Of a stretch of 64,000 nucleotides of DNA, positions 4,210-48,200 are shown piece by piece (the first letter of the stretch is position 1; the number at the start of each line of letters is the position of its first letter). A program made the translations under genes and the position numbers. The DNA comes from Haliotis asinina (taxonomy: Eukaryota > Mollusca > Gastropoda > Lepetellida > Haliotidae). The DNA is taken from NCBI RefSeq assembly GCF_037392515.1, contig NC_090290.1, forward strand, positions 20,287,753 to 20,351,752, given 5' to 3'. The notes beneath the pieces are model-generated. The model did no database searches, was not told where the DNA came from, and saw only the letters and a program-made list of their open reading frames with translations.

Positions 4210-4329
4210 AATAGTAAGGTCGGTCATATAAATTTCCGTCAGGATGGGGGATAGTGGGGAGCCCATAGGTAGTTCATGGACTTGCTCCTAGCCTCAACAA
4301 CCTCCTCAATGCCAACGGAAGAAAACAAC

Positions 4330-4688
4330 CCACTGTCAACAGCAACAACCCGAAATGTGTTATGTATAAAATAAACTGTGATTGTGGTCAAAGCTACATT
4401 GGTGAAACATCACGACCCATCAAAACCCGAGTCAGAGAACATGGCACCTCTGTTACTAACTTGGACAGCAAATCAGCCATCTCGGACCACATCAAAGAAA
4501 ACCCTAATCATCAAATAGAGTGGTCAGACATCACAATCCTAACCAACAACCAAACGGACTTCACCAAACGCAAACTCACCGAAGCCATTCACATCAAACG
4601 CCACAAGCCCACAATCAACTGTGACCAAGGATACTTCATTCCATCTGCTTATGATGCACTCCTCTACCAAGCCCAATTAATTGTATAA
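4330..4688 (+). mobile_element. Penelope-like element 3' end, GIY-YIG endonuclease
   Basis: Frame with PKCVMYKINCDCGQSYIGET, then R-x-RE-H, and the ...RHKPTIN...GYFIPSAYD ending. This is the GIY-YIG endonuclease module at the C-terminus of Penelope-like retroelements; YIGET and the downstream Arg/His are visible. The reverse transcriptase part is missing, so the copy is 5'-truncated. About 108-115 codons are open. Confidence 0.88.
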
Positions 4689-12247: not shown

Positions 12248-15200
12248 GTGAGTTTATGCGAATCCCATGAACCAATGTTTGCTGTACTTTATTTTGTTTC
12301 TGATGGTGCAAAGACACCAATGTTTCTGACCCTTGTACATATGACCATAAACAGTTGGGTTATTTAGTGTTTCAGAATGAAAAGTGTACTCCGCAAATTA
12401 GTTTGTATTGGATAGGAATATGATACAGATTGTTTTGTGACACTGACATAGCCGTATCTGCCATGATAGACTTAGGTGTTGCATACGTCCAGAGAATTTT
12501 CAGAAATTTATGAAAACATCAGGTTGGCTGACGTCAAACATTCAGTGACTCGAAAACGTCAATCGAATACACCCCAGCTCGTAGTTTTATTATCTGGTAA
12601 TTAAAAGTATTGACAAGATGAAAACTATTTCTGTTTCAGGTGCTGTGGCCATGCATCTGTAGCCGTACCCGTTTATACCCTGCGCTACAAGTGCTGTGCC
12701 GGGTGGACTGACTACTATGGAAACCAAAACTGCAGCATACGTAATTACTGTTACAAATCTACCTCTTGTATTTTGTCGTTTAAGACCAATTGTAGACAAC
12801 CATTTCGTGGGTTCTGATGTTGTTTAAAGAATAATGGACAATGATCTTCTGATTTGTTATTTTGTTCTTATGAACAAGCTAAAACTGCATTCTGATGGTG
12901 GTTCATTCTGTATCTGTGTGCACTTTGTGTCCATTCAGCAATCTGTTACCCCCAGTGTGCAAATGGTGGAAGCTGCACGTCCCCAGGAAGGTGCACATGC
13001 AGGCCCGGATATACTGGAGCGACATGCACAGGACGTAAGAACATATTTCGTAGTGTTGTCTTAAAAATCATAGGAAGGCTTGTTTTTGTTGTGCTGTTAT
13101 TCTCAGGAACCCGTGAAGATTAGGGTTAGAACTGGTCTTCCGTAACCCATTCATATCGTAAGAGGCGTCTCGCAGGATCTGGCTCACTGACTTGGCTGAC
13201 ATATGTCATCGTACAACAGTTGCGGACCTTGATGCTTAGAATGTTGATCACAGACTTGTCTGGTCCAGAGTGGATTATTGATTGGAATGTGCCAGCTATA
13301 AACAGTGTAATTCCGTGGCACTCAGTCTGAGGGACAGCCATCGATCAACAATCGGACATTCAAACTTACGTGCTACCAAATCATGTTGAGTGAGTGAGTT
13401 AACGTTTATAGTCAATATTTCAGCCACATCGCTACAAGAACAATTAAGTGTAGATATAGTAAATGGTATATTGTAAAGATTTGTCGACGAAGGACATTAA
13501 AACCAACTAGTATATCACAGTAACGAGAAATAAAACCAGAGTATATTTCCTAATATGACTGCAAATGAGGACAATAAAATATAAAAGATGGCTGAGGATC
13601 GCCAATAACCGAAAGTAGATCACCACTCTAGGCACTATCGAGACTTACAGTTCTTTGGTTACCTGCATAGACCACAGCTTATACCATCCCTTCAGTCACT
13701 GGCACTATTAATCATGGGTTGAGTTCATCTTGCCTTGTAGCGAGGTGCAACCGTATTTCACTTCTCTTCCGCTTTGGTGGGACATCATTACCTGCCACAG
13801 AATGGACTGTTTTCTTGTGTATTGCGCCATCAAAGATCTAGCGTGTTAGTGTCCTTGGGGCCCTTCAACAGTCGGATTAGAATTGGTCTGTTGTGAATTG
13901 ACGTGTGAATGAAGGTCGACTATGGTATCACGGTTTATTATTGTAAATGGGAAGGAGAGTTCTGTTACTCTTGTGTACGGGAAGAAGGGTCGCGTTATGT
14001 GACACATGTTGCTGTTCTGAGTGGGAAGCAGGGTCGACAGGGTTATGTTGGTCTTGCGAACGGGAAGGAGGGTCGACAAGGATGTCGCATCTTGTGAACG
14101 GGAAGGAGGGTGGACAAGGATGTCGCATCTTGTGAACGGGAAGGAGGGTGGACAAGGATGTCACATCTTGTGAACGGGAAGGAGGGTGGACAAGGATGTC
14201 ACATCTTGTGAACGGGAAGGAGGGTGGACAAGGATGTCACATCTTGTGAACGGGAAGGAGGGTCCACTGGGGTGCCACAAGGTATTAAGGTTACTTTGAG
14301 AAAGTCATGATCAGGAGTGGACAAACGTGGTTTCCATAACTGACATAGTGACATAGGTGAAACAAAGTACATTATTATCCAGTGTTAAAGTTAAGTAACT
14401 GTGTATAAATGCACATATCTTCACTTTTCACTATGGCATTAATGGAAGACGGTGTCATCAACTGTTGATGTTTCCAGACGAGTGTAACAATGAACGGCCC
14501 TGTTACCCAGGAGACTGTCAAGGCAATGGTGGGAGTGTGGTGTGCAACTGCATGCGTGACTTCAGTGGTCAATATTGTAAACACCGTAAGTAATGAACCT
14601 TTCCCCCGCTACATAACTAAACCTGGAGGAAACTGCTGTTGCTTTAAAATAAACCTTTAACTCGCTAAATGTTGTCAAGTTGCAAGTCGTGTGGCGAGTA
14701 ATAATTTCTCATGATTTCATGACTCCTTATGCATTTTTACTGTACTTGGGCTCAGTGAACAGCAAAGGCTTTCGTATCCGTGATATTTGAGCGTTGATTT
14801 GATATTTTGACTTTACCAGATGCGCCCATGTTTGTTTACTTGAACGACTGACTCTGCTTGTGGTTTTGACAAATGGTCGCCACAGGCGCGGCAAGACATG
14901 CCCATGCAGATACCTCTTATTATTATCTTAACTGAATTTGTGCATTTGTAATTATAAACAATCATGATTCTCTACATCGCTTTACACATCGCTCGCTTTG
15001 TTTTAATTATCATACAAGTAATATAATACATTATACTATTTATCCCATTTCACTTTACAGTGGATGAAAACCAAACTCCGGAGGTCACACAGATGAGGGC
15101 ACAGTTTTCGTACTGGGGATATGAAGGTCACACAAAGAGAGAGATCTTCGGATTCATAGCCGATGCCACGGACAAGACAGAGGAGGTCAAAATGTGGACA

Positions 15201-21200: not shown

Positions 21201-24200
21201 TAACTGACCTTAGAATTCCTGAGAGAAAGGGCGTAACTAACGTTGAAAGTCTAGAGGGAGGGGACGTAATCCACTCATTCAAAGTTTCGAAAGAAATGAC
21301 GTAACTGACTTCAAATGTCTCGAGACAAGGGACGTAAGTTGCTATCTCAAAAGTCTTGAGGATTGGGACGTAACTGACTCTAAAAATTCCAGCTTCCATA
21401 CTATAGACTTGGCTGTCCCTTTCTCTGCACTCCTCCCTCGTAACAAATAGTAACCTATCAATGTTTTAATGATAGTTTCTTAAACAACTGTTTTTTTATT
21501 TAAGGAAAAATGTTCTTCAAAAACCTCACAGAGTTGGTATGATGTTCTGATTATGATCAGCGTTTCATTGAGTATGCTGTGTTCATTAGTTTTCGAGTTA
21601 CATTGCAAGTCATCGGTCCGCTTTTGAGCCAGACGGACTATAGACGAAATAGGCTGGTATGTCAGAAATATGTTTAGCCTGATTGGCTAGCCTTTGCATT
21701 GTCCAATGATCGGATTTCGATCGATTGCAGATTTTGCAAAACATTTGCAGAAATGTCCAATGGGTGTCCACAGATGTCACAGATCGTTTTGTATTATTGA
21801 TACGGGCGCTTAATCTATCCATACACTTCTCAAAGTAACTATAAGATCTGATATTTTGTTTGAAGTAAATGCATGTAAGGTGGAAATAATTGGAGAGACA
21901 TAAAGGGACATAGCTTGTAAGAGCCTCCTGCGGTGTATTCCAACCTGCACCGGTGTTTTCGTATTGACAATTTCTGTTCATAGGTGACGAAACTGTTGGA
22001 GCTAAACGGTACCACAACTTGTAAGTAATGAAAAATGCTGATATGTATTCTATCTATTCCTTTTTAATAAGAACTGATCACTAAGCCTTGATCAAACATC
22101 CATGCTAAAAGGAGTGTTAGTCTAGGGTTAAAGTGTTCGCTAGTCACGCCGGAGAACATGGTTCGTTTTCGATAACTCACATGGGTACAATGTGTGAAGC
22201 GCATTTCTGGTATCCCACAGTGGATATTGCTGGAATAATGCAAACTCACTCAGCATTTTCACTGATCCAATCAAATGATTGCCATAATTGGTTCCCTCTC
22301 CTCGCCCAGATGATGGATAATGATTGAGACTGATGTTCCCATTGCGTGAAAACTAGATACACGTTTAAGTGGCCAATGGCCATGGCGTTTGATTCTTCAA
22401 GGAGGTTGACTGGTAGCACATTGTGATTTCTGAAAGTCCGATGGGAGGTCATATCCGGTAAAACCTGACTGTTGGCGTTGGCGTGAAGGTTTTGAGTCAT
22501 CCTTGCCGTATGTTACCTCTCATTATTGTGCTGGAAAATTATTCTACAAGGCTGTTGGATGAATGGCTCCACAACAACTCCTCGAATAATGAGGATGGTT
22601 TTGGCTTCACGACATATTCCACCCGAAACCGTTAAATCTCCGCCGGACTTGATGAATGAAGCTCTGTACCAAACGTTACCCAACACGTCGGTACAAACGC
22701 GGTCAGACCATCGTTCCTGAACATGAAAAATGTGCTCTCGTCGGAAAACATGATCCGTGCCCACCGTGGCTGTTGCCAACGTCGAAGTTAACTGGCTCAC
22801 ACTACGCAGTGTGCTGGCTCAGGTGTTAAGGTGTCAGGAACGCGCTGTGGTAGGGTCGACGTGGATGGATACTATGTCCCTGCAATCTCCTGCACATGGT
22901 TGTCGACTTATCACGTCTCCCAATGTCGCCATGATGTTCCGGAGTGCAGTTCCGGAGATGAAGTACCTGGATGTGATAGTCTTCAAAAGGATTGGTCTCC
23001 CTCTTCTCCCTCACTTTGATGCGTGTGCTCGTTTTTCATGATTGATGTTCCCAGATTTTTTCATCGAATGTTTTCGATTATGGGAAAACGCTCCAGCTCA
23101 TGTTTTCGTGCTAAAAGAAATATTTAATTAAAACAAATGTTGAACAAAATGTTTGGTATCGTTTCTACTGGACATTAGTTGATTTGGTATAGTAATGAGT
23201 AGTATAGGTAATGAGAGTTCTGGACCACTTTTCAAAAAACCCCTCTAAAAAGCCTCATTTACTAAATGAGGCTTTGGTGGGACCCTTAGCTCTTGCTACT
23301 ATTGCCCCTACTACAAAGCCACGCCATCACGTTTACCGTGACTTGGCAGGCGGTAACACTGTGCCGTACGGTACGATCAATAATTCTTCTCTTACAAACC
23401 CCCTACCCGGCCCACCCCTCAAGTAGTACAAGTTAGGTTCGTCGGCTTTCATATCCACTTTATCTATGTTGTAAGTTTTGACTGACCATATAGGATCGGT
23501 GGCTCGCTTACGGCTATCGCCCTCGTGTTCCCCCGGCTGGTATAGATACCTCACTAGGGCCCTATCTGGTATCTGTTTCTCCTTCCCACGCAATGGAGCG
23601 GCCGACTCTGCAACTATTGACTTTAGTTTGATAGCGTCTGCCGGTTTCTTACCGGTGAGACGGGTGACTTCATGGTTGATTGCCGACACCACCTCGGGTA
23701 ACCTCGTGACCCATTCGGTCGATCGTTTTCCAGGGGTGGTCATCTCCCTAGCATACTGATAGCCGAACAAGCGCTCAGCTAAAGTCCTATTAAATCTCTC
23801 AACTATGGCTTGGCTGCGATGGGCTCCGGCCGTGCCACGCCTGACCTTTGTATCGTGTTTGGCTAGCAGTTGTGACACGGCACCCATGAACTCCCGTCCG
23901 GGGTCAACTTGCAGCTCTGTTGGCCACGTCAGCGGGCTGCGTTTGTATATACGTTCAAATCCTCTGGCTACCTGGGCCGAATCTTTCGTGGTCAAGGGTT
24001 CGGCTTCCTTGTAACGACTGGCTACGTCCACTACGGTTAAGGCATACTTGTACCTCTTATCGTGGGGTAGGAACAGTAGGTCTGCCTGGTGAATGCTATT
24101 AGGTATGTTAATACCGAACCTCCTTCTAGGTACGTAGCGTGGTGCAGGCAAATAGATCTGCCACAGGGCTTGTTTTTCAAGCCACGCTTTGGCTTCCTCC

Positions 24201-27200
24201 GGGGGTACTCGCGCTAGTTTAGCTAGCTTATCTACTGCGCTAGCTCCTTTCCAGTACCCACGCGGGCTGTAGTAAATAGACTCAAATTTTTTCATGTCCA
24301 TACGCGTATGTGTTTATCCCATCAATAGCTATCCAACGTTTCGTGTCCATAGGCGATAGGGACGTCTTGTTTATAGTCAGTCCGTATATCTTGTGTCCAT
24401 CACTTCTAAGTGTGTTCATTTTATGTCTAAAGGTACGGGTCTTGAACAGGGCTTCCTTGAATCTGGCGTGTTTGATGTGTTGTTTCACCACACACTTCTT
24501 AACCCCCTTAGCCTTCCGGATCTCGCTATTGTCGGCTTTCAGTATGGAGTACATCTTAGGCCTCAAACCTATGTACTCGGCTATGGGCGTGCCAGCACAC
24601 TCGTCCTTCATCTTACCTAGGACCTTTTTATTTACCGTACTGTGCATGGCATGGGTCTTAGGGTAGTCGCTGGTGTCGTATAAATCGATGTGTTTTTTCA
24701 TGTCCTCGTACACGTCCTCGGTTCGAATCTCCATCAGCAGGGAATCCGTGTCAGTGTACAGCACTTCACACCTGTCGCCGTACTGTTTCTTGAGCTCGTT
24801 GTAGTAAAAGTCGTACATCAGGTGTTTGGATAAATCGAGGATGCTCATCCCCACGTAAACAGGCCGGTTGAATTTTATGTGGCTTTTCTTCATGTGTATG
24901 GCAGCCAGGTCGTCTGTGAATATCTTGCTACGGTTGAATGCCGGACTGGCTATCAATTTCCTGAGCTTGTCTTCCTCACTAGATCTAACCAGCTTCACGG
25001 TCACGCGTTTCCTCAGGTTCTCCATAGTCTTACCAAACACCGAGTTGTTCATGAGCTTGTAGAGATTTTTCTCGAAATCACTGGTGGCTTTTTTTCGTAG
25101 GTCTGTGTTCATTCTGATGTAGGGCTCCATCCATGGGCTCTGGTCGAACATGAGCACCCTGTGTATTTTGGTCAGCCTCATACCCAACGACAGGTACAGC
25201 TGTAGGTTGCGATAGTGAACGATGTACTTGGTCTTATTCATTAAGTTAGGCACGAGTTTTTCAACGTCTGTCACACGACCACCTGACAAGTTATGTTGAT
25301 ACTCAGACATCCAGTCTGGGTTAACCCTCATACGTTCGGGTGCAAGGGGATAGCTGTTGTGCGATGCGTGTAATGCCTTGGGATACTCTAAGTCAACCTC
25401 GAGGATATAACCTTTGTTCGAATCTGGTGCAATGCTCATAACATCAACGTGGGGTACCCATTCGAATCCCCCTGTAGGTAGATACTGGCTCATGGCCCAG
25501 CCGTACAGGTTGTTTGCGTCGAGGTATAGAATGTGATTGGTTGGTTTGTTAGGATCGTAACCTTTCACGTATTGATTATTTGCTTTAGCGTATCGTTTGG
25601 ATGCCATGGAAATCCCACCTCGCAAGCCTTTCTCAATGAATAGGTGCATGTCGTAATCTGTGAGCAATTCCAAATTAACTCCGGTCTTTCTAAGCAAGGC
25701 GTCCCACGACAGACCTGGGCTGGTGTAATACCATGCGGGGTCGAGTTTATACTGCTTTAAACATGTCCGCCTGAACGTTTCAAACACGTCGGCTAACAGC
25801 AGTACATCTGTCCTCAAGTACAGGTCGTGATAATCACCCAGGTTTTTACAACCCAGTTTATTCCATACGTTAGTCGCGTGCGAGTAATCATCTCGTGAGA
25901 CGGACGCCTCATTCAGCTTGCTATAAAAGCAGTCAATAGGAGGTAGTCTGGTCTCGGTGAACTTGGCCCAACTATCCATGTACTCATAGGGGTACACACC
26001 CTTCCTCATAAGCAGGGGTCTAGTCTTGGCGTCTGTGTATCGATCGGTGATAGGGAAGGTATTGTTGGCCTTGACCAGACTGTCGAGTGACGACAGGAGG
26101 AACTGAAACGAGTCAATAAACCTAAGTCCGTTTAAGCTGAAGGAGATGTATCTCTCCATGTTGTTGGGGATGCATGATATATTACCATCGATTTTCGCGA
26201 TGGCCTGCATGATCAAGTGTGAGTCGTACCCTCTCAAGTTGTGAAAGACAACGGGGATGTTTATTGTCTTAGGGTTGATTTTAAGCTTGAGGTTGCACGC
26301 GTTGTGAGCGGCGCCTCTATACTTACCAGTTATGTGACAGTGATCTCTCACCGAATCACCGTTAAGCGGTGAGTCACACACGTGACAGTTAGTGCTACTA
26401 GCGTGAGCTAGCCTGTCGGCTCGGGTCATACGCATGGGAGCGATTCTATACAATGTATTCCTAATAATTTTTTCTTCCTCCTGCAAGCACTTTAGAAACC
26501 TTTCAGCCGCGTCAGGGCCCCTATACACTACCGGAGCTTTCGTTTCCCCGTCACAACGGACGACAATGTATCCAAACGAACAGGCTTTATGCTCTTGTGT
26601 CTTGTGGGTGAAGCTACCCCCACTAGGGGGTGTGGGGGAATCCCCACCCACAACTAAGGCTTCGAAGTCGGCGTATATAATATAAGGTACAGACATTTGG
26701 TTCTTGTGGTTACTGAATTTTAGGATATTTTCACCTTCCTTAGGCATGTCGACTCGTATGGCCGTCTGCCCCACACCTTGACAATCATCCCGGTGGGATT
26801 CTAATAAATCAGCTCGACTGAAACCGTGTAGACATCGTACACAAAAATGTTTTTCCCCATTGTGTTTCGACTGGTCGTGCAACAACCGGCTGAGATGTTT
26901 TATCCATGTGTAGTGAAACTTGTCACCTCGCTGGATCATGAATATATTGATAACTTGGCAATCCTTCACCGTGCTGACCCTGTGTACTATTATTGTATTA
27001 CCTTCGTGCCCAAAGACATTTATAGCCAGATTATTCTGTTTTTCTACTTTAGTGATCTGGGATATGGGGGTGGGTTCATCTATACCATCCCAATTAAGCC
27101 CATCATCTTGGGGATAGCTAGAAAGCCTATCTGAATGAGTGGCAGCTGGAAATAAGGCTGACCTGATAGATATCCTCAGGCAATCGTTTCCTCTATTCTT

Positions 27201-30200
27201 AACGTTTACTATGGCATGTTTGTTCCTATAGTAGGGGGGTAAGGCTAGGTATGACCCGCCTCTGAACGGCACGTATTTAGCTATGTCTAGATAGACGTTA
27301 TCGATTTTATCCACAGCCCACCCGGACCCCATGTGCGTGTAGCGTTCTAGGTATTCTCGTATCTGCTGAAAACTTGTATCGATTGATGCGTCAATGGTCT
27401 CTGCATGTGTGACGACCTCTTGTTTGCCTCGGAAGTAAGGTTGCAAATACTCAGTGACCCCTGTGGTGCCCTCCTTATCGAGCGACATTTTCACTGTGAT
27501 CTGAAACTTGACACTTCCTAGATTATTTAGTTCCTGGTTGACCTTATCAGATATCAGAGGCTTGATATCTGTAATGTCTATGTTTCTATCAACGTGCATG
27601 CGCCAACTTCCCAAATAATTACCTACAGCGTGCTTAGTGCGCACGAACTGTAGGTCAATAGCTCTATTCTGTCGTAATAATTCTACAAGCTGTGGTTTTC
27701 TCATACGGGAATACCCGCCTAAACCCAAATCGTGTGCCTCGGCTTTCAGTTGTTTTACAGTGGGACGTGCTACGGGGGCATGTGATAACAATGCGGTTAA
27801 CCCGGCTCTCCCCAGGTTTGAATAACCCGTGTGTCCAAGCTGTTTTGCTTGAGCTTTTAATTGTTTTACCGTAGGAGGGGCTTCTAAACCTAGTAATCTC
27901 AACAATGCTGACTTCCGCATTCTAGAATACCCGATAACACCTCTCTGTTTTGCGACCCTCTTGAGCTCGCGCACAGTAGCCATAGTGTTTACACCTAAGA
28001 GAATCAATGTCTAATTGGTCGGCAGTAACTCTTAAAAAATATTTTCTGGTGGCCGGGTACAATTCTAGACATTCTGTCAAATCGTCCCACGTACCTGGTA
28101 AAATATATAGTGTGGCTGTTTCAATCCAGTACTCGCCTTGGGTATAGTATTCCTTGTATTCACTTATACTCGAAAAACGTTCTATATGGTATTGAGACGC
28201 GATATCCCGCTCCCATTCGAAGGGGTGAGTATACTTAACACCCTCTTTAATCCATACCACGTCCACTATTATCTTAAATCTGAAGCTACCCCATAAGGCC
28301 AGTTCATATTTGAATATGTTTTCCACAGACATAGCTATACGTAGGTGTGTATAATCTCTAATTGGAGTCTATCTTGAGCAGTCGCCTACGTTCTTTTATG
28401 TAGCCTTTTTTATTCTCGTATATGAGTTGATGTCTGACTACGTTCGCTCCGTGAGCTTTACATAAACAGTAGTGTCCTTTAACCCCGATACCACACACAG
28501 AACACGTGTAGTTAGGACTTCCCATATGGAAACAACAGAACCCCTGATTCCTGCATTTCCTACCACAGGCCTCGGTCTTCCCCATAAGTATATATTCACA
28601 TCGGTATGGAGCGGGTCTCATGTTTACTTATATAGGTATTTTAGTTTAATTGCTTAGCAACCAACGCAGTAGCTGCTATACCCAACACTATGAAGCCCAG
28701 TTCACGATTCATTTGTCCCTTGGATGGTGTGTAGTACTGAGCGAGTGTGGGTTCATTGAGCGCTTCCAATCGTTTACCAGTTAGTTTGTAGTATTCTTTC
28801 ATTCCTTCATCGACATCGTTGAATGTTTGAACGGCATGGTTTTCACGCTGGAGTTGTTCGTTAATGAAATCGAGCCTCTGGAGGCGTTTTTTAGCGTACT
28901 CGGCCTGTGCTCTTTGTAATTTCTCAGTAGCGAGATCGTGTCGCTTCCTTTCTTCCTGTATTTCAGCCGCGTGATCATCTCGTAGTTTCGAGAAGAGGAA
29001 ATTACTCCCGGAAAATGCCAGGGCATTCACTAACGCCCCACCGACCATCATAGCTATCGTGGCCATCCCTATATTTATTTCATTATATTATCAGGTATTA
29101 TTCCTTGTTTTACTAGGATGTCTTTTGTGGCCATCGCCATACCAAGGTTCATTATGAGCATACCCATATCCTGCAGGTTGAAATCTAGCTTGATAGTTGG
29201 TTGTTTAAGCACCATTTTAGTCAACCGAGCGTACCCTACTGCTAGACTGGCTACCACTGTGGCGTGGTATGCGTCGTTGACGAACGTTTTCCCCTCAGAC
29301 ATTATGTATATGATATAAAATATTTTAAATTATAACATGATATGCGGGTCTACCATGGGGGATACCCCCATACCCCCACTGTTGTGGGTGGGTGGTGGCT
29401 CACTGTGGGAGGCGTATAACCATGTTATAACCACGGCAGCAGTTACACCTACAGCCAACAACAGTCGGGTTGGGTTGGTCACTTTATGTTGGTTACACCA
29501 CCGTTTTTTACCGGCAGCTACTCTCTTAGGATTCTTCTGCCTGGTTACTGTTGGGGGTACCCCCACTGAAGGGGTCTCCTCCATCACTGTTGGGGGTGGG
29601 GTCTCCTCCACTGTTGGGGGTACCTCCACTGGGGTCTCTTCCTGTGCAGCATCCATCTATACTATTATTATTATTCTTTCTCTCAAATTGACAATGTTTT
29701 GCCGTGATAATCGCCGCCGTCACTGGGGCCAACAACATACCATATTTGTGGTACAGCCCGCAGCTGATAGAGCTCACGGCGTGTTCGATAAAAGGGTCTT
29801 TATCTAGGTCCTCCCACAGGTAAAGTCGGCGCTCTGGTGGAATGGGAAGGAAGTGTGATACAATACCGGTGTATATCTGGGTCATAGCCGATCCTATTGT
29901 CTTTGTCATTTCTGCTCCGAGCCGGGACTCGTATCTAGCGTACAGCTTATCGATTTCTTCGGCTGACATTTTGTTGATTTTATCTGGAGTGTAGTCTCCA
30001 AAGTAATGTTTGGCTTTGCCGCCAACAGCCAACGCCACCAGTTTCTCTCGCTTGGGGGAATCCCCAGTTGGGGAACCCTCCACAGACAATTGTTCGAGCA
30101 ATTCCTCACACTCCATCTTATAATATAACAAGTAAGATTTAGTTTTAACTATATAATACCCGATGCAGACAAAACACAGAGAAATGAAAGTTAAGTTGCA

Positions 30201-33200
30201 CACGACAAATACTTCAAATATCATAGCTATGCTTAGCATTTGCTTAGCTTTGCTTAGCTTTGCTTAGCTTTTGCTTAGCTTTGCTTAGCATACTATATAT
30301 GCTACTGGTTGGTCGGTCTTTAGAACGAGCTTAGCGTGTTTAGTTTCAGCGAGCTGTTTCTTCACCCGTTCCCGTTCTAATTTACTCATCACATCGTTCT
30401 CTCTCAAACACTCCTCAAACGAATCCCTATCCTTGCAGTGAAATAAGGCCACCCATCGCGTCTGCTCCCTGAGGTCTTTCAACACCGAGTTGAACTTCTG
30501 CGTTAGCACCCAGACGCTGTGATTTGCATGCCGGCCGGAGAAGGCCAGGTACGATAGCATGTCTCTCTTTTTTGTTATCTCGCGATTAGCACTGCAGTCG
30601 TCCAGTATAAACAGCGTCGGTTCCCCTTTAAATTTCTCGTGAAGAGCTTTCAACCAGTCCTGCAGGCGTGTTCCAGGGTCGATTTTGTGTACGTCCGGGT
30701 CCGTCATCACCCAAGGTCGCGCGTACGTTTTATTCATGCTCAGAGTAGGGCACATGATAACGATGTTATCGAACACATCCTTGTAGTAACCCTCCAACAT
30801 ATCCAACACGAAAACGGTCTTACCACAGCCAGTCTGCCCGCATATGATAGCGCAGTGTGGGTCAGTGGGGAGGGGGAGACCCCCACACCCCCCAGAGGTT
30901 GGTAGTTTATTGGGGGGTATGGGGGGGTACCCCCCACTAGTAGATGGCTTGCACGAATCTCCCATTGTCTATATTAAGTTGCGCGTCCATAATAACGTAC
31001 AGATATAATTTCAACTTACCAGCGGTTTGAGCCTTCTTATTAATCTGGATAGTTATCCCTTCGCTACCGTTATCTATACGGCGCCCGCTACCGTGCAGTT
31101 TATCATCATCCGTGGATCGCATGTCCAACCATAGGGCATACTTGGTGGTCAGGTATTCACCGATCTGCACGGAGCCGAGGTCCAGGTCCTTTGTTATGTA
31201 ATCCCCCACTGGTAGCTTTTTTATCTCATCCCACTGCTGGTGTGGCCTCATACCATGACTGAACAGCTGGTTGGGCACGCCCTCGATGGTAACTTCCACC
31301 TTTTCAATCTCGGGGTTGAAAAACTTCTCGCTGTCCCTCCGGAATGGATCATAATCCTCCACGGGGACGACCAGGATACCTTTCATCGATCGCGCCGGCA
31401 CGTTCAGGTTGATATTCCACACAGTGTCGCTCTTATCTCGCACGACTGATCTATGCCTCAGCACGCGATCGTACAGGATAGCCATCTTCCCAGAGTACTG
31501 GCTTCGAACCTGCCTGGCCAGCTCCGGGCTAGTGACCATGTCGAACTCCAGAGAGATGTTGTCTATGGCATAACTGGCCTCATCACCGTTCGGCGTACGC
31601 ACTACTTTGCTATAGTCGTTAAACGTGAGCTCGTATTCTAGCCTATCACCCAGCGCGGCCTGGTAAAACGGCGCGTGTCCCGTGAGCAACTCGAAGTCGA
31701 GCGGCACGCAGAATCGATTCCCGTATGCTAGAGCTATGGCCTTTTCACCGTCCGATAGCTTGTCTTGCTGGTCTTGCGTGAAGACATACCCTATGCGCGC
31801 CCGGGTTGATTTGCTGATACCCTGGTACACATCATTGACTCGTTCTCTCTCGCTTTTCCAGAGATCCTTGTAGCAGTGAAACACGTCGCTGTCGTCGATA
31901 CTCAGTACCTCGTTACCGCTGATCTTGACGGTCGTTTTCTTGATGATAGCTCGACCCACGTTCCGCACTAGCTCGCGTTTGTCGTTGTCGGAGGTCAACG
32001 TGATATTGAACGCCAGTCGAACAGTGCCTGGTACAATGAGGTCATTCTCACCAAGGTTTGGAAATCTAACCAGCAGAGTTTGATTCTGGTCTATCTTGCT
32101 GGGGTTGTTGGTGATGGTCACCGACTGTCGCACGGCTCTGGCACCTAATGGCTCTCTCAATCTTCTGAAAGGATCTAATTTTTTACCGTACATTGTTATA
32201 TAAATAAAATATATTTTTAATACTAATGGATGAAGACATACCTATGGATGAGATGCCGGGCGCTAGTGCCCAGGCATTCGATGATGACCAGGAGACCTCA
32301 TTCTCGCAAAGTGACGAGCTCCTTAAGGGCGCCGTCGACGATTATTACAACGCAGTTGAAAATAAATCCAAACTCAAACCGTTGGGAAGGAACTATTCCG
32401 ATTTTACCCTCAGCAATGGCACGCTGCGTTTGAAGGCTCACCCGGGGATTGATCTCTTTCATCAAACAACGAGAAAACCGCTTGCTTTATCAACATTGGC
32501 CGGTAAATATAAGATTAACTTTGTTCAAGATGAACTAGGCTTCACAAATTACGGTGGCGCGCGACCTAAGCAGTATCCTCCGAAGTTAGTTCAAGATCTG
32601 GAAGGCATCAGGGACGCCACATCAGATCAAAACATGACTTATGATATTAAAAAAGTGTTGGCCGACTACGAGAACAAACCATTCCCGGGGCTCGAATTTA
32701 CCGTTCGGGAACTGCGGGGGTTGGATCTGACGATGCAAACCATTCGCGGACATCTCGCGAAAAGCACAGCCAAAATGAGTGAGATAGACGACCACATCGC
32801 CTATGAAAAGAAAAAACTCGGTGAAACTGAGGACGAGTCTATGAAAGCCACCATCGAGGAACGAATACGTAATTTGGAAGATGAAAAGCAGACCTGGCTG
32901 GAGACAGCATCCTCCTTCAAAGAAAAGCTTCGATCCCAGGTCAGCCGTATACGGGAAACCATCAATCAAGTCCTCTACCGAGACACCACGTTAGCAGACA
33001 GGATTCGGATATTATTCCGGGAGCAAGGGATCACCATCGCCAGCATTCTGACTGCATTGGGTTTAATCATATCAACCCTGGTGGTGTCACTGGTGGGAGG
33101 AACCCCTGTGGGGCCTGCCGGCGGCGGGGGAACTCCAGGCGGTGGTGGTGGTGTTAAAGACTGGATCAAAAAACTCGGGGAAGGCCTAGCTAAACTGGCT

Positions 33201-36200
33201 GGTAAAGCCGCCGAAGCCCTTCCCGGCATCCTGGGTAGCATCGTCTCGTGGTTGTTGAGCGCTCTGTCTAAAACTGCCATGTGGCTCAGTCAAAACCTGT
33301 GGGCAGCCATCGTCGCTGTGGCGGGTCTGGTGTACGTAGCGGCTAAGAAATCTTTAACCAAATAAGTCCCAAAGTTACCCCACCAACCACTAGGGCCGTT
33401 TTATTATCAATATGCTGCTGATAGGTGGTGGAAACCCCCACACCCCCCGGGGGTAACCCCACATGAACTTTAGGCTCCGGTGGTGGCGCCACTATACCCT
33501 TTTCACGTGGTTGGATGTGTGGGATATGTGGGGTGTTAATATCGGGGTTGATACCCAACTTTTGGTCCGCCGTGGCTATGACTATTTTGTTGTTATAACC
33601 CACCACTTTTTTTACTCTCAGTTGCATATCACTCGGGGCCATGTACAACCCCACACCGAACACGTAATTGACTTTCGATCTGGCGTATTCTAACACGTTT
33701 TGGTAACGGTCGATGGCCCTCGGGAGATCAACTGGAGAATTGATAGCATCCTCAACGTTGGAAACGAATTGTGTCTGAGCGTCGTAAGCAGTTCCCTTAC
33801 CGAGGATGTTAGAACGCGTCATCGACTGCGCACCCAACAGCGCCCACACGTACGTTCGAATCGAGTCGTTCAAGCGTATTGTACCAGCACGAGTGAATCC
33901 TTTCGATGTTTTTGAGATCATTTTAGTCCAGGCTGTGGCTGCATCAGGACTGGTTTGCTTTATACAGCTGACATGGATCTGTTCATTCGTTGTGGGGCCT
34001 GTAAATGTATGACGGTGTGGGTTGTATGAACCATCTTTAGAACCGGCATAATATTTTCCGGACCTGTAGAAGTACACGAGAACTATACCGAGACCATGGT
34101 TCACACCAGGAAGGCGAAAGTCTTTATTCGTTGGAATCTCAAACTCCCCACAAATACGTTCATAAGCGCGTCTATCATAGGGGTTATTCGTCATACTCCA
34201 CGCTTTATCTTGGGGAAGAGGAGCACTTATTTCCTTCAATATTCGTCTCGTTTGATAATAAATATGAAACAAAACAACCGCCTTACTCAGTTCGTCTATA
34301 CCGTAGTCTGGTGTCACACCCGACCCTGTCGTCGCACACCACACAGCAAAGTTGAGTTGGTTCTGCCAAAACTGCATTGGGTTTTGATTCCAGTTTACCA
34401 CCGCCTGCGCGTTATTAACGGACACGACATACTTTTCAAAGATATCAATAAAGGTTGTTTTAAACCCCGTACCATCTGCATTAACCACGATTTTCAAGTG
34501 TGCTAAATCCATATTATAATATATAAATTATATAATATAATATGTACATAACACTTCCAGGAATAACGAGCGGTGAGGCCGTTCAGCTGACGCACGCGAT
34601 CGATAACACGTCAGGTCAACTCGAAGTCGCACTCTGCGATATCACCTACCTACCGCAATGGACTAACATTAATATCAGCAACAATAAGCTGTTCGTCAGT
34701 GGAACTCGCAGTCAGATAACTGACGGCTACTACAGCGTGTGCTCTCTAAACGACGAGGTCTTCAAACCCCTGGGAGCTGAACTCAAGATGAACGACTCAA
34801 ACGGCACAGTGGTGTTAATCAACAACGGAAGAAACCCTTTGAGGCTCGGCCGACCATTAGCAAGGATGCTCGGTATGTCTCCTGACGAGATAAAACCAAC
34901 AACAACCGTCACAGGCACGAAGTTACCCGAACTAGTACCGTACCGAGAGCTATACATTCATCTCGGTCAGGTGAGCACAACGTATAACATTCAAGGAGGC
35001 CACCCTTCCACTATACTGAGAGCAGTGCCGGTGAAAACTGAGAAATTCAACGACGGTAGAACCGAGTCATTTTCACCACGGCAGTATAAGAGATTAACCC
35101 AGGGCAACATACCTGAGCTGACAATATCGGTGTTAGATATAAATCATAATCCTGTAAATATAGGATACCTCAGCTTAACGCTTCACGTAACATGACCAGC
35201 GCACAAGGACCCGGAGTGAAAAAATGCGTTAATATCGGGATCTCCGACCTCGGAGACACACGCGGTTTCGACGCTCCCGGAGTAGATGGTAAAACGTACG
35301 CCTTGCAACTGAAAAACAACATTTACAAACGCGTTGAAGTCTCCTCCGGTGGAGCCCTAAGCGATGTAGTAGATACCACAGGAGCAACAGTCAACACTAA
35401 GTACGCCCTCGTCAACACCGGTGATGACAACTGGAGAATATACCCATCGTTCGGGGGTAAACTGTTCGACTTAGACGATGTTGAGAGAACTACCATCAAA
35501 AAGAACCGGCCATATAACCTCGCCTTCACTGAAGATAACAAGTGGGTGTTTTTACCCGATTACAAAAACTGGTTTCTCAATATTAAAATCTTCTCCCCCT
35601 ACGTGTTCACTGATAACAAAGACCACTACCTAAACAAAATCGTGAACGATGGATTCCTGCTCGTGGCTTACGTCCCAACTCAGAGACGTAGCGTAGTCGT
35701 CAGCCCAATCAACAATTCACCATTCCACATGCTATCGAGTAAAACGGGTATACAAAACGTGTCATTACAGTTGGTGTCTGAATTCGAAGGCGTGGACAAA
35801 GTACTAGATGGTATACCGTCAAATACAACACTGGCCATCAAAGTCTACCTAGGGGAATCATCGGGGGATAACGTCGAGATCGTGAAGGGAGTCAAACTAG
35901 GGTGGGAGAAACGACACAAGGATCAAGTTTGCGACGTTTACGTGCGGGTGGGTGTCGGCTCCAACACCAGTCTGCAGGGTGTCAACGTGATCGTGGAAAA
36001 CAAGATATCACTAACCAAGATCTTCCTACCTAACAACATACACTTTATTAGTATGAATTTAATCCCTGAATTATTAACAGAAAACCAGTTGGAAATTATA
36101 TAATAATATTATAATAATGACCAGTCATCATCCCAACACTACGCTTAACGACCTGGGAGATACAGAGGGATTCGATCAGCCTGGTGAGGAAGATGAATTA

Positions 36201-39200
36201 TACATCCTGCACTTCAAAGACAACGTGTACAAACGGGTGTCGTTATCAGATTTTAAAGAACCCAAATGGTTGCTCAACTTAACAATCGCCTCACCTTATA
36301 TCATATTTAACGAAGATGGTATTTCTATCTCTGAGATTAAGAACAACGGTACCTGGTTCTCAAATTTCATTCCGCATGGTTTATCAAATCCAGTATATAG
36401 GTGGGGCGGGAAAAAAAATATGTTACGGGTAAGAGACAAATTAACAATTGGCAGTGGTGGTGGGGGGGATGTTATTATAAGCTCCAGATTCTACACACTC
36501 ATCATAGAAGTCTCCTTTACGAGATTTGACGAGGAAAACTCCTTGAGAGGACACCAAATTTTACCCGGGTTGGTAATACACTGGTATGCCGAACACTTAG
36601 ACCAAGATTGTCGTATTATTATACAAAATAATGTTTCAACCTCTCATCTAACCTACTTAATAAGCCTGCAAGGGGTTTTTATTACAACAGACTATTTATC
36701 TATGAGAATCACACCTATTACCTTGAATGATAAGCTATCCCTTGTTGGCTTCAAATTCATTGATAGACTATTAACTGAAACTCAATTAAAATATTTTTCA
36801 TAATATATATTATAGGATGGGTCTGTACCCAGTTGTAGAGGAAGTAGCGAAGACGTTGGAAACCGTAGATGGGTTCCGCTTGAGGCAGTTATGTGATGTG
36901 AAACGTCAACTAGAACAAGACCGTGACACGCGGAAAGCACTATGTAAAAAATATAATAGAGCTTTCAATATCGTGGATGGGGCTGACACTACCCTTATGG
37001 CAACCAGCATGGGACTAGGGGCGGCAGGCGTTGGGTTGTTAACCACCATCGTGGCTGCACCTATAGTGCTAGGTATTGAAATAACGGCTGGGGTGACAGG
37101 GTTGGTAGGGTTGGCGCTTAAGTTAGTATCACGCAGACTTAATCGTAAGGCATTGAAACACGACGAGATCAGGGTTCTGGCCGAAGCAAAACTCAACACA
37201 GTGAGTGAGCGAATTTCCACGGCACTCTCTGACAGTAAGATCTCAGAAGAGGAGTTTAGTTCAATCCTCTCTGAACTCAAAAAATATAACGGAATGAAAC
37301 AAGATATTCGATCCAAGTCTCGTAAGTCTGCTATCAGCGAGGACGAGAAAAAAAAGTACATAGCACAGGGAATACAAAAAGCCCAGCAAGCCTTTATTAT
37401 GAACACCAAAGAGATCGTAGGCGGTTCACGTTAAACTGTTTCATCGATATAAACATAACATAGCCGTAAGCGAGCCACCGATCCTATATGGTCAGTCAAA
37501 ACTTACAACAAATTATTGATCGTACCGTACGGCACAGTGTTACCGCCTGCCAAGTCACGGTAAACGTGATGGCGTGGCTTTGTAGTAGGGGCAATAGTAG
37601 CAAGAGCTAAGGGTCCCACCAAAGCCTCATTTAGTAAATGAGGCTTTTTAGAGGGGTTTTTTGAAAAGTGGTCCAGAACTCTCATTACCTATACTACTTA
37701 ATGCCATGTATTGCTCACGCACAACCCCGTCTTTACGTTCCTCCAAATTTCACATACACCTACCTTAACAAATCTTGCAGAAAAAGGAGAAACGTGATCT
37801 TACGAAACAACAGTAAGCTGTTTCAATGATGTGATCTTTCACCAGACTTACCACCCTCAAACCTGAGAACCAAGCGATTGTCTTCAACATCAATCCGTGT
37901 GATGTGGGACCATGCCCCGGCTTGCCACGAACGCACAGTTATAATAATAAGCTATCAGACGGATGCAGGGCCAGTCCATGAGGTGTCTGTGCCCAAAGAT
38001 GATACATCATATGACCTCATTGGCCTTGAACCCGATAAAACATACAAGGTTATGGTGTCAGCTGGCTACGGAGCACAACGCAGTGAACACAACGTCAATG
38101 TCGTCGCCAAACGTAAGTACCCCACTACCCAGAGGTGTGTACCACGAAAATGTTTTCCTGAGATGCTTTATATTTATATGGAATAACTGGGGCTTGACCA
38201 ACCTCTTTTGCCCAGCCTGTTTTTGTGTTGTATTGTCCATAATAGTTGTATAATTTTTTTACAGGCGGAAGTACTCACGGAAATAAAAAGAAAATAGTTT
38301 TGGCCTAGTTTTAACACAATTTTTTTATCGCTAAATATTCTATGATTGTTGTGTTTCCGAACTTTTCTTTTGCAACACTTTGTTTAAATCATCCGAGACC
38401 CGTGAAGATCCGGGATAGAATAGGCCTTCAGCAACCCATGCTTGTCATAAAAGGCGTGTCTGCTTGTCGCAAGAGGCGACTAACGGGATCGGGTGATTTT
38501 ACACATGTCATCGGTTCCCATTTGCGCAGATCGATGCTCATGCTGATGATCACTGGATTGTCTGGTCCAGACTCGATTATTTACAGACTGCCGCACGTGC
38601 AAATGTATCGTCTTACCAGTGCTGCAGGTAGTTACCATCCATTGTTGATTGTTAAAACAAATTCGTTGATAACATACAAACTTTGATTGTTTTTATTTGT
38701 TAAAGGATATACTTAGGTGATGATTGGAGGACCAAATTAAAATTATTTTGATAATTGTTAATGCTATATGTAGTAATAAACAAATTAACGCCGAAAAACA
38801 TATTTCATCTTGAGTTTTAAATTCTGTATCAGTGGTAATCTAGTTATGATACTCCGCTTCATGGACAGGTTTTTGTAGTTGGATGTATACATCAAGAATT
38901 AATAAGTTTTAGTCACGCTCTTGAAATATTGAAATATTCCCCATGTAACGGTGCTTAAATTAAACCACTCATTTACATGCAAGTGCACGCGACTATATTT
39001 TTGGATTAGGTTTCATAACATTCTAAGAATTATTTGAGATTACGCATAAAATAAGGTTTTCACTTACGAATACATTCATAAACTCCCAAAGAGTAATTAA
39101 ATCGACGAGTGTCGTTTTATGGCAAATCCCAGTAAGGCTGCCTAGCTCTGCCTGCTGAGAGTTTATAGCTGGTGTTTCAATAGTATTAAATGTTTTGTTG

Positions 39201-45200: not shown

Positions 45201-48200
45201 TTGAAAACAGACTGTACCAATTCAGCTGCCTCAATATGATGTCTTTCTCCAGATTGTCCATCGCAAACTGGCTGCCCGCAACTGCCTCTTGACCAGGACA
45301 AATGAAGTGAAAGTCAGTGGATTCGGACCTTGTCGCATGGAGGACGATAGTGCTGATGATGCTTCCAAAGGGGTAAGAAGGGAAATATATAACATACATC
45401 TATATAGGAGTGGTCACTACTTTATAGTGGCCACTAAGAAATTGAGCGCAAACAAGACACACGTTACATATACAACAGTAACCCTGAAAAGTATGGAGGC
45501 ATCATACTTTAACAGACTCACAGGCAAATCAGAATGGAGACCAACGATAGTCTACGCCAGTAACACACAAACAAGGAACACAGATTGCCCATCCGGCCCT
45601 TAAACTGAAACGCATTTTATTCAGAATGACACACCATGAATGATGACAACGTGATATGTTACAAACACAAACAGGAGCGAATCCCCGTGAAGTGGACTGC
45701 GCCAGAGTGTCTTCAGTCTCTGAAAGAAGCCAATGAGAAGAGTGACATCTGGTCCTTTGGGATCACAATGTGGGAGATCTTCAGCATGGGTAGGTGTGAC
45801 AAATATATTCCTGAATATGCATTGAAAAGTCTTGTGTAACTAGGTATTTATGTGTTGGTACAGTTTACCAGAATTACTGAGAAAGTTGTTTCCTCAAATA
45901 TCTAATACTTAAATGAATATATTGAGATATGATTGTCCTTCAGTCTTAGTATCGCTACAGTACTTTGGGACATCTTTGCCCTTCAAAGATATGACTGAAT
46001 GCGCCTAGGTACACTATCGATCAGAGTTTTAAGAAATCATATGAGAGCATATCCCAATATTTGATTGAGTGAGTGGGTGTAGTTTTACGCCGCACTCAGC
46101 AATATTCCAGCTATTTGGCGGCGGGTCCGTAAATAATCGAGTCTGAAGCCGATAACCCATATGGCGGCGGTCTGTAAATAATCAAGTCTGGACCAGACAA
46201 TCCAGTGATCAACAACAAGAGCATCGATCTGCGCAATTGGGATCCGATGACATGTGTGAACCAAGTCGGCGAGTCTGACTACCCGATCCCGTTAGTCGCC
46301 TGTTACGAGAAGAACAGTCGCCTTTATGGCAAGTACTGGTTGCTGAAGGCCTATTCTACCCCGTGACCTTCACTTCTTCCTTCATGTCTTCAATATGTCT
46401 AAGTCCATTTTTATATATTCTGTACTTTATTGATACCCACACCTATTCAATATGATTAAGATATGGGCTGTAGCTGGACTAGTCTAAAACTAGACCATTT
46501 TCATCCGTCAGCCACCCACCGTTTTCAGACGTTGGAGGATAGATCTTTATTCACATTTTCACAGAGTTCTGAAAAATCCAGAGAAAATGTTCATCAGAAA
46601 ATAAAACAATCCAAATCTTGATGTTCGTGAGCCCTGCATCAGTTTAAACGTCCTTTTTGTGCATCTTTCATAAATGGTGAAGGAATTCCGCGCTCGTTCA
46701 CCCAGTAAACTTAAGTCTTGGTAATTCTTGTCTAAGGGTTTCAGTCAATATCTGGACACGTTCTCTATTAATCATCTGATTTCTAATATTCTTGAGCAAC
46801 GTGTTTTACTTTTACTGAACATCCTTGGCCTCCCTGCCCGTCTCGTTCTCAATCCCAACTTCCTACTGCACATTCTTCAGAGCTTTGTTTACTGCATACA
46901 GAGGGAATGCCCCATCTACCAGCTGACGCTCTTGCATTAGTCACACCTCCTCCAAAGTATTTAAAATATATGATGTTATCGTAAACAGGTTTCTCCAGAA
47001 GGAAGTTGAGATACATTGTAGAGCATAAAAACATTTACAATGCTGACACATTGGTCGCGTGCACTCATTTTCCCGCCACTTTGTTTCAAACAAACCGCCG
47101 AAATTTCATGGTACAAGTCTATTGCCCCACTCGGGTCTGTCTAGTTTCAACACGATTTGTCATGGCTTTTGATTGACAGGCGTATGGTACCAAGCCATGA
47201 AAAATCGTGCACAGGGGCTTGCTTGTAAGGCTGAAAATTGCCATCAAGTTATATATTGACCCTTTTTTAATAGTAGTAATACCCCATTAGGTACAATATA
47301 TACCTTGATGGCAGTTTTCAGCGTTACAAGCCCCTGTGAAATCGTGTTGAAACTAGACGAACCTACCTCTTGTGTGCCAGTGGGGTAACTTTAACGTAGA
47401 GAACATTCTGTTGACCAATATTTCGCTGTGAGGCCTTTTGGACTTAGGCTTGAAGCACTTATTGTCCCTCAGTGAAAACTTTCTTCCATATTTTCGGATC
47501 AGCACGGATCGTCAGAACTGGTCTTCAGCAGCTAATGCGCAAACAGCACTAGATTTTGAGATCAGCAATAACTTACATTAAGAAACAATTGACTATCAAC
47601 AAGATGCATTCACACATACGCTAATGGAGTTACAAGAATGAAAGGCAATACAATGAGTAAATTGTGTGGCAATGGAATAAAAAGTCCCATTACTAACATT
47701 AGAACCTCATCGGGGTAGTTTTAGAATACACTCTATGTTTTATCTCTCAACAGGCCAGATCCCTTACGGTGACGTCAGGAGCCGAGACCTTCCAACCCAG
47801 CTTATGAATGGTTACAGACTCCCCAAGCCAGAATACGCTGAAGACGTGTAAGTGATATGATGCGCGTATACTGATACCACAAGTTTCTTATTGCGTGGTC
47901 AGAATTATTAAGTGAGTTTAGTTTTTCGCCGCAGTCAGCAATATTCCAGTTTTATTGTAAATGTTTTTATGTGCTTTTATATTGTACCAAACACCATTCA
48001 CGAGGTGAAAGCTCATAGCGCGAACAGTTGAAACAGGCACATTATTACCTCGGATAAGCCAGCAAGCCTGACCATCTGATCACATCAGTAAATAACAGCA
48101 AGATTTAACACGACGACCTGTCAACAGTAGTGTCAGTATCAAAATAAGCGAGTGATCGAATGCATGAAGAACGATTCAGACCGATAGTAGGATTATCATA

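What the first reader, a model, noticed from the sequence alone, without database searches (positions are those of the whole stretch)
23198..37698. Apparently complete, recent Polinton/Maverick inside an intron of a receptor gene
Seen: TIRs identical by eye where they align, a flanking TAATG duplication, intact integrase, PolB, ATPase and capsid genes, no stop-broken ORFs. Known: Polintons with capsid genes are suspected to form virions, but most genomic copies are decayed. Inference: this copy inserted recently and may still be active or infectious for the host's cells.
Basis: partly seen in the sequence, partly recalled or inferred. Interest (0 to 1): 0.9.

Follow-up and report, generated by a model that had tools for sequence, protein, structure and literature searches.

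The report
Recently amplified, recombining Polinton capsid-virus family
The finding is a real, undamaged virus-like element sitting in an intron of an animal receptor gene, and the same animal's genome appears to hold roughly a thousand close relatives of it whose capsid gene is under strong selection while parts of a few other genes come in very different interchangeable versions, which makes it a good place to test whether such elements live as viruses.

Summary
A 14,501-bp Polinton/Maverick lies at 23198-37698, flanked by TAATG duplications, in an intron of a receptor-tyrosine-kinase-like gene. Its TIRs have no mismatch in 239 aligned bp, but the right arm lacks 81 bp. Integrase, PolB, ATPase and double-jelly-roll capsid ORFs are open; no protease was recognised. 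The larger finding is outside the window. The unnamed 1.14-Gb host assembly holds 1,193 matches to a capsid word and 1,233 to a TIR word (controls 0). 16 of 16 paired copies, this one included, have different, perfect 5-bp duplications. Twenty copies differ by 1.7% in the capsid gene, mostly synonymously (dN/dS 0.055), without stop or frameshift. 66% of informative capsid site pairs show four gametes (clonal simulations: mean 4%, maximum 33%), so copies recombine. Parts of orf379, orf389, orf228 and orf136/PolB-N are hypervariable; orf379 and orf389 come in anciently diverged forms between much more similar flanks. Best reading: a young polintovirus population that spread through rounds needing a working capsid and exchanges modules. 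Virions and infection are not shown; sampled copies were chosen by similarity, so the share of decayed copies is unknown.

The parts
23193..23197 (.). left copy of 5-bp target site duplication TAATG
23198..23517 (+). left terminal inverted repeat (320 bp; contains 81 bp, 23386-23466, absent from the right arm and coding for part of the integrase C-terminus)
23333..24301 (-). integrase, 322 aa, rve core domain
   Evidence: Pfam PF00665 E=2e-10
24282..27983 (-). family B DNA polymerase, 1233 aa, with Rho_N repeats at the N-terminus and an Endonuclease_7-like insert
   Evidence: relatives with PF03175
27922..28332 (-). orf136; variable segment V3 (28020-28379): of 20 other copies 9 have the full 136-aa ORF, 1 a shortened one, 7 instead an upstream-extended Rho_N-type PolB start, 3 something else
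28641..29066 (-). orf141, unknown
   Evidence: no Pfam above cut-off
29526..30239 (-). orf237, unknown; a similar ORF in L001 (by eye); stretch 29550-29639 reaches 95% identity in 0 of 20 copies
30285..30965 (-). genome-packaging ATPase, 226 aa (A32/FtsK type)
   Evidence: Pfam PF04665 E=1.3e-8
30937..32193 (-). major capsid protein, 418 aa, double jelly-roll
32226..33365 (+). orf379; roughly 32303-33160 is hypervariable segment V1, C-terminus conserved
33343..34512 (-). orf389, C-terminal helix that looks membrane-spanning (by eye); N-terminal half (about 33883-34512) is hypervariable segment V2 with forms A (this copy) and B
34542..35195 (+). orf217; candidate penton/minor capsid protein (by memory of the family, not tested); conserved
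35192..36103 (+). orf303, unknown, moderately variable (81-100% nt per 100-bp window in 6 copies)
36117..36803 (+). orf228; similar at its N-terminus to orf303 (by eye); about 36300-36800 is hypervariable, 5 of 6 copies carry another form
36817..37434 (+). orf205, unknown, conserved (dN/dS 0.17 in its C-part)
37460..37698 (-). right terminal inverted repeat (239 bp)
37699..37703 (.). right copy of TAATG
37846..38112 (+). host exon (fn3 domain) immediately downstream; the element lies in the preceding intron of a receptor-tyrosine-kinase-like gene
   Evidence: borders by eye; kinase exons

Best explanation
This is one integrated copy of a young polintovirus (Polinton/Maverick) family that has inserted around a thousand times across this animal's genome. 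The integrase cuts the target with a 5-bp stagger (inferred from 16 of 16 duplications). Copying uses its own protein-primed-type PolB (inferred from gene content). The new copies came through rounds in which a working capsid protein was needed (inferred from dN/dS 0.055), most simply virions or at least packaged genomes re-entering germline nuclei. Copies or their parents met in the same nuclei and recombined (recombination shown as pattern; place inferred). That recombination shuffles different versions of parts of orf379, orf389, orf228 and orf136/PolB-N onto a common backbone; for orf379 and orf389 the versions are anciently diverged. These parts probably face the host or competing viruses (inference; function untested).
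For: Copy number: capsid word with up to 3 mismatches 603+590, reversed control 0; TIR word exact 619+614, control 0. 100 of 100 scored capsid matches (of 2,741 candidates) are full length, at least 99% identical, without stops (best-scoring, so biased). Copies chosen by TIR instead: 19 of 20 pieces held the capsid gene, 0 of 19 with stop or frameshift; dN 0.0036, dS 0.065 over these and the window's copy. 38 of 40 copies (19 TIR-chosen, 20 capsid-chosen, the window's) have both orf379 and orf389 open. TIR arms within a copy differ at 15 of 3,007 bases over 16 copies, 10 of 16 at none, against 1.64% between copies. Recombination: 393 of 595 capsid site pairs with four gametes versus mean 0.04, maximum 0.33 in 200 clonal simulations with rate variation; r2 falls with distance (permutations reaching the observed value of 2,000: capsid 68, cassette middle 0, orf217 1, orf389 form A 7, orf379 major form 0). 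Modules: orf379 66% and orf389 70% amino-acid identity between forms, synonymous divergence 1.9 or saturated; windows outside the variable segments mostly have median identities of 0.90-1.00; the major orf379 form occurs with both orf389 forms (20 A, 10 B); form A word 850 genome-wide, control 0, 71% of 1,193, near 27 of 39 sampled.
Against: No virion, transcript, extrachromosomal DNA or second individual was examined. No capsid protease was recognised (18 ORFs), which most Polintons have. Ectopic gene conversion between integrated copies could cause the recombination signal without co-infection. Four-gamete pairs are frequent already below 50 bp (0.35-0.61 in the five segments) and rise with distance clearly only in some (permutations reaching the observed value of 2,000: orf379 0, capsid 17, orf389 34, cassette middle 99, orf217 526), so repeated mutation adds to the signal or recombination is very fine-grained. 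Constraint is uneven: ATPase part 0.27, orf389 C-part 0.37-0.52, orf379 C-part 0.24-0.27, orf379 variable part 0.64-0.66 within forms, its first 25 codons 1.1-2.2. All sampled copies were picked by similarity. Counts for form B and both orf379 forms were not obtained.
Confidence: 0.62

Rival explanations
1. A burst of an ordinary self-synthesising transposon inside the germline, without virions; capsid genes ride along on a recently active master copy.
For: Very high copy number, dispersed insertions and many open copies fit a burst; TIR asymmetries (full, -21, -37, -81 at the non-integrase end) are shared by several copies as subfamilies would share them.
Against: Copies differ by 6.5% at synonymous but 0.36% at nonsynonymous capsid sites: the capsid was under selection through the diversification that preceded insertion, which a capsid-independent burst does not need.
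Confidence: 0.2
2. The mosaic pattern is made after insertion by ectopic gene conversion among host copies, not by co-replicating viral genomes.
For: About a thousand similar targets in one genome; r2 drops within 50-150 bp, as for short conversion tracts.
Against: Both TIR arms within a copy are more alike than between copies (0.5% vs 1.6%), and the sampled copies keep open, constrained ORFs; neutral conversion of integrated copies would also spread disabled versions. Not excluded.
Confidence: 0.25
3. Assembly artefact or contamination.
For: None found; relatives do occur as contaminants in bacterial or archaeal MAGs.
Against: Host exons on both sides, copies on many chromosome-size contigs with distinct flanks and duplications.
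Confidence: 0.01
4. The host keeps the copies for its own use, for example as inducible defence against another virus, as proposed for endogenous virophages of protists.
For: Intactness and number; analogy with endogenous virophages (PMC8547959, passages).
Against: No helper virus known in animals (recalled), insertions look scattered, nothing here tests expression.
Confidence: 0.05

Closest known systems
Vertebrate Mavericks (PMC8097293; abstract start, passages and section 8 seen)
   Same: Integrase, pPolB, packaging ATPase, capsid genes, TIRs, target duplication; purifying selection on capsid genes read as evidence for particles and reinfection
   Different: There: 134 intact elements in 17 species, at most 38 intact in one genome (up to 287 in all, those defective), 96% of copies defective, 6-bp duplications, a protease. 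Here: about a thousand copies in one genome, nearly all sampled ones open in the genes looked at, 5-bp duplications in 16 of 16, no protease recognised
Adintoviruses / meld viruses (PMC11071296, PMC11071308; outline of the latter and passages of both seen)
   Same: Integrase, hexon-like capsid, PolB with a Cys and a His that by eye could be those of the described vOTU domain; variable accessory virion genes and gene exchange reported between viruses
   Different: In the passages seen, variation is between viruses of different data sets; here between copies in one genome whose capsid genes are about 98% identical
Endogenous mavirus-like virophages (EMALEs) of Cafeteria (PMC8547959; passages seen)
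   Same: Many integrated, apparently functional copies; recombination and module replacement
   Different: Protist host, 33 fully resolved elements, linked to giant viruses
Mavericks annotated in mollusc genomes (PMC8905726, passage: 7,091 annotations, 1.69% of the Mercenaria genome; PMC10294476, passages)
   Same: Comparable share of the genome (here at most about 1.5% if all copies are full length)
   Different: Those are repeat annotations; the passages seen say nothing about intactness, capsid selection or modules

Membership tests
Polinton/Maverick | RVE-type integrase | tested here: met
   PF00665 E=2e-10, above cut-off
Polinton/Maverick | family B (protein-primed type) DNA polymerase | tested here: met
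   ORF of 1233 aa; the 120 listed relatives are 63-73% identical over the polymerase part and 84 of them (my count) carry PF03175. The ORF itself gave no PF03175 hit at E 0.1. Protein priming itself not testable
Polinton/Maverick | A32/FtsK packaging ATPase | tested here: met
   PF04665 E=1.3e-8, above cut-off
Polinton/Maverick | double-jelly-roll major capsid protein | tested here: met
Polinton/Maverick | penton (single jelly-roll) protein | not tested
   orf217 is a candidate from memory of the family only
Polinton/Maverick | adenain/Ulp1-type cysteine protease (identifiable in 74% of Polintons in PMC4028283, passage) | tested here: inconclusive
   No hit in 18 ORFs at Pfam E 0.1; a diverged one could be missed
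Polinton/Maverick | terminal inverted repeats | tested here: met
   239/320 bp, no mismatch
Polinton/Maverick | short direct target duplication of integrase type (6 bp in intact vertebrate Mavericks, PMC8097293; 5-6 bp by recall) | tested here: met
   16 of 16 paired copies have exactly 5 bp, so the vertebrate length of 6 bp is not met
[quoted passage not shown]
   Reference sequences not held; Cys and His candidates in PolB seen by eye only

The most novel reading that the evidence does not exclude
The genome holds a snapshot of a living, effectively sexual animal virus population: about a thousand integrated, mostly intact polintoviruses that still make particles, with a few old, balanced allelic series of host-facing protein parts (serotype-like or compatibility-type modules) shuffled freely on a young backbone.
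Probability: 0.3. Interest if true: 0.92.

Novelty: new variant of a known kind. Interest (0 to 1): 0.7.

Why it matters
Whether animal Polintons live as viruses is an open question, partly because most known copies are fossils (96% defective in vertebrates, PMC8097293 passage). Here one genome offers about a thousand young copies, a strongly constrained capsid gene and clear recombination, so particles, new insertions and module function can be looked for directly in one host species. The interchangeable protein parts point to which genes may meet the host or rival viruses.
Full report
THE OBSERVATION. It runs from 23198 to 37698 (14,501 bp), with TAATG at 23193-23197 and again at 37699-37703. 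The termini read AG...CT. The inverted repeats align over 239 bp without one mismatch, but the left arm holds 81 extra bases after position 188 of the repeat. Those bases encode 27 residues near the integrase C-terminus, so the integrase end would be expected to keep them. Across 16 paired copies, the integrase end has the full repeat in all 16; the other end is full in 8, lacks 21 bp in 3, 37 bp in 1, 81 bp in 3 (this one among them) and is more changed in 1 (my tally). The arm difference is therefore more likely an inherited feature of some lineages than damage to this copy.

HOST GENE. The element lies in an intron of a receptor-tyrosine-kinase-like gene whose exons are on the + strand: EGF exon at 12.9 kb, fn3 exon at about 37846-38112 with AG and GTAAGT borders by eye, 147 bp after the insertion, a hydrophobic stretch at 41.2 kb (by eye), kinase exons at 44.6, 45.2 and 45.6 kb. 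That these belong to one gene is inferred. The kinase has HRK where HRD and GFG where DFG are usual (by eye; motifs recalled), so it may be a pseudokinase.

THE FAMILY IN THE GENOME. The assembly (1,143,192,487 bases, 159 contigs) can be searched. The right-arm query matched 40 arms at 98-100% identity, which are all 40 that were scored of 1,641 candidates (six further 27-base matches in the list lie inside such arms or next to them and are not counted); they form 16 pairs (this one included) and 8 singles. A 34-base inner TIR word occurs 1,233 times exactly, control 0. In the first 100 listed arms, 27 pairs lie 13-15 kb apart, 4 pairs at other spacings, and 69 elements are implied, so 1,233 arms suggest about 850 elements (extrapolation). 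A 34-base capsid word occurs 1,193 times with up to 3 mismatches, control 0. If every one were full length, that would be about 17 Mb or 1.5% of the genome; this is an upper estimate. The best 100 capsid matches of 2,741 candidates are all full length, at least 99% identical and without stops; this list is chosen by score.

INSERTION AND AGE. 16 of 16 paired copies have a perfect 5-bp duplication, all different. Published intact vertebrate Mavericks have 6 bp (PMC8097293, passage). Arms within a copy differ at 15 of 3,007 compared bases over the 16 copies, 10 of 16 at none; left arms of different copies differ by 1.64%. For the window's copy, no stop in 13 ORFs and no TIR mismatch give a 95% upper bound on divergence of 0.0057 (stops only) or 0.0030 (both), assuming open frames and equal arms at insertion and neutral drift since. 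At an assumed 1-5 x 10^-9 per site per year (recalled range, not measured) the second bound is about 0.6-3 million years.

SELECTION. Pieces of 20 copies chosen by their TIRs, not their genes, were fetched; 19 held the capsid gene. With the window's copy, 20 sequences differ on average by 1.67% (0.24-2.55%). dN is 0.0036, dS 0.065, dN/dS 0.055, on average 3.5 nonsynonymous and 17.5 synonymous differences a pair; no stop, no frameshift. Other pieces: integrase C-part 0.13 (17 of 38 arm pieces, the integrase ends), orf217 0.09 (20 of 20), orf205 0.17 (21 of 38, the other ends), orf389 N-part 0.19 (12 of 20, form A), ATPase part 0.27 (18 of 20; repeat-rich N-terminus with in-frame length changes). 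From the larger cassette sample: orf389 C-part 0.37-0.52, orf379 C-part 0.24-0.27, orf379 variable part 0.64-0.66 within forms, its first 25 codons 1.1-2.2. The capsid was thus selected through the diversification that came before the insertions. In the argument of PMC8097293 (passage), that points to particle formation and reinfection. Constraint on the other genes is uneven.

RECOMBINATION. In the capsid gene, 35 informative sites give 595 pairs, 393 with all four gametes. 200 clonal simulations at the same divergence with strong rate variation gave a mean of 0.04 and a maximum of 0.33 against 0.66 observed. r2 falls with distance: permutations reaching the observed correlation were 68, 0, 1, 7 and 0 of 2,000 for the capsid, the conserved middle of the cassette, orf217, orf389 form A and orf379 major form. 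The share of four-gamete pairs rises with distance less regularly (17, 99, 526, 34 and 0 of 2,000 in the same order), and is high even below 50 bp (0.35-0.61), so repeated mutation may add to it.

MODULES. Pieces of 39 further copies between the capsid start and orf217 were compared: 19 chosen by TIR and 20 from the capsid list. orf379 falls into four groups at 90% identity (31, 6 with the window's copy, 1, 1), orf389 into two (27 form A with the window's copy, 12 form B); 39 proteins each; 38 of 40 copies have both genes open. The orf379 forms are 66% and the orf389 forms 70% identical. Their variable parts differ by dN 0.42 and dS 1.9 (orf379) and dN 0.48 with saturated synonymous sites (orf389), while 90-bp windows outside the variable segments mostly have median identities of 0.90-1.00 (one window at the edge of V1 has 0.84). 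Joint types: major/A 20, major/B 10, window-type/A 6, three single combinations, one of them with a broken orf389. A form A word occurs 850 times genome-wide, control 0, 71% of 1,193, against 27 of 39 in the sample. Counts for form B and the orf379 forms were not obtained. Two further segments vary: orf136 with the PolB start (11 of 20 copies lack the full ORF) and the C-part of orf228 (5 of 6 copies).

READING. Shown: recent, dispersed, integrase-type insertions; high copy number; constrained capsid; recombination; old forms of two genes on a young backbone. Inferred: replication by the element's own PolB, passage through particles, recombination in co-infected or multiply activated nuclei, host-facing role of the variable parts. 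Ectopic gene conversion is a live rival for the recombination. Whether any particle is made today is open, and the share of decayed copies was not measured.

NOVELTY. It is a Polinton by integrase, PolB, ATPase, capsid and TIRs; the protease is unresolved and the penton untested. What is unusual is the number of open copies (vertebrate maximum 38 intact per genome, PMC8097293 section 8), the 5-bp duplication and the module forms. A comparable genome share has been annotated in a clam (1.69%, PMC8905726, passage), so the load alone is not unprecedented.

Noticed in passing
45205-45600 (+): Kinase exon of the host receptor reads VHRKLAARN and VSGFG where HRD and DFG are usual (by eye): possible pseudokinase receptor.
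   Followed up: partly
G000 contig C1: 31 of 65 exact capsid words lie within 13 Mb of a contig end (16 expected); the 13-Mb limit was chosen after seeing the positions.
   Followed up: partly
G000 C1:11599045-11601705: A pair of TIR words only 2.7 kb apart, and two pairs 9.2-9.4 kb apart: possible internally deleted derivatives.
   Followed up: no
G000 C4:31451742-31471437: TIR pair 19.7 kb apart with its own TTACA duplication: probably a copy with a ~5-kb insert.
   Followed up: no
L001: Decayed Polinton pieces (capsid, and by eye ATPase, orf237-like and PolB) on a contig binned as a Diapherotrites archaeon MAG; likewise two capsid relatives named from Candidatus Thiodiazotropha MAGs: probably animal DNA in MAGs.
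   Followed up: partly
P0335, P0346: PolB relatives of 68% and 66% identity named from snake assemblies (Pantherophis, Ahaetulla): contamination or cross-phylum transfer.
   Followed up: no
27922-28332 (-): orf136 resembles by eye the part of PolB just before its OTU-like domain, as if a duplicated terminal-protein-like domain.
   Followed up: no
34513-34541: Only 29 bp of A+T-rich DNA separate the divergent starts of orf389 and orf217: a very compact two-way promoter region.
   Followed up: no
4269-4685 (+): ORF resembling by eye a GIY-YIG nuclease of Penelope-like elements; no Pfam match at E 0.1.
   Followed up: partly
14052-14263: Minisatellite, 38-bp unit, 5.6 copies, 98% matches.
   Followed up: no
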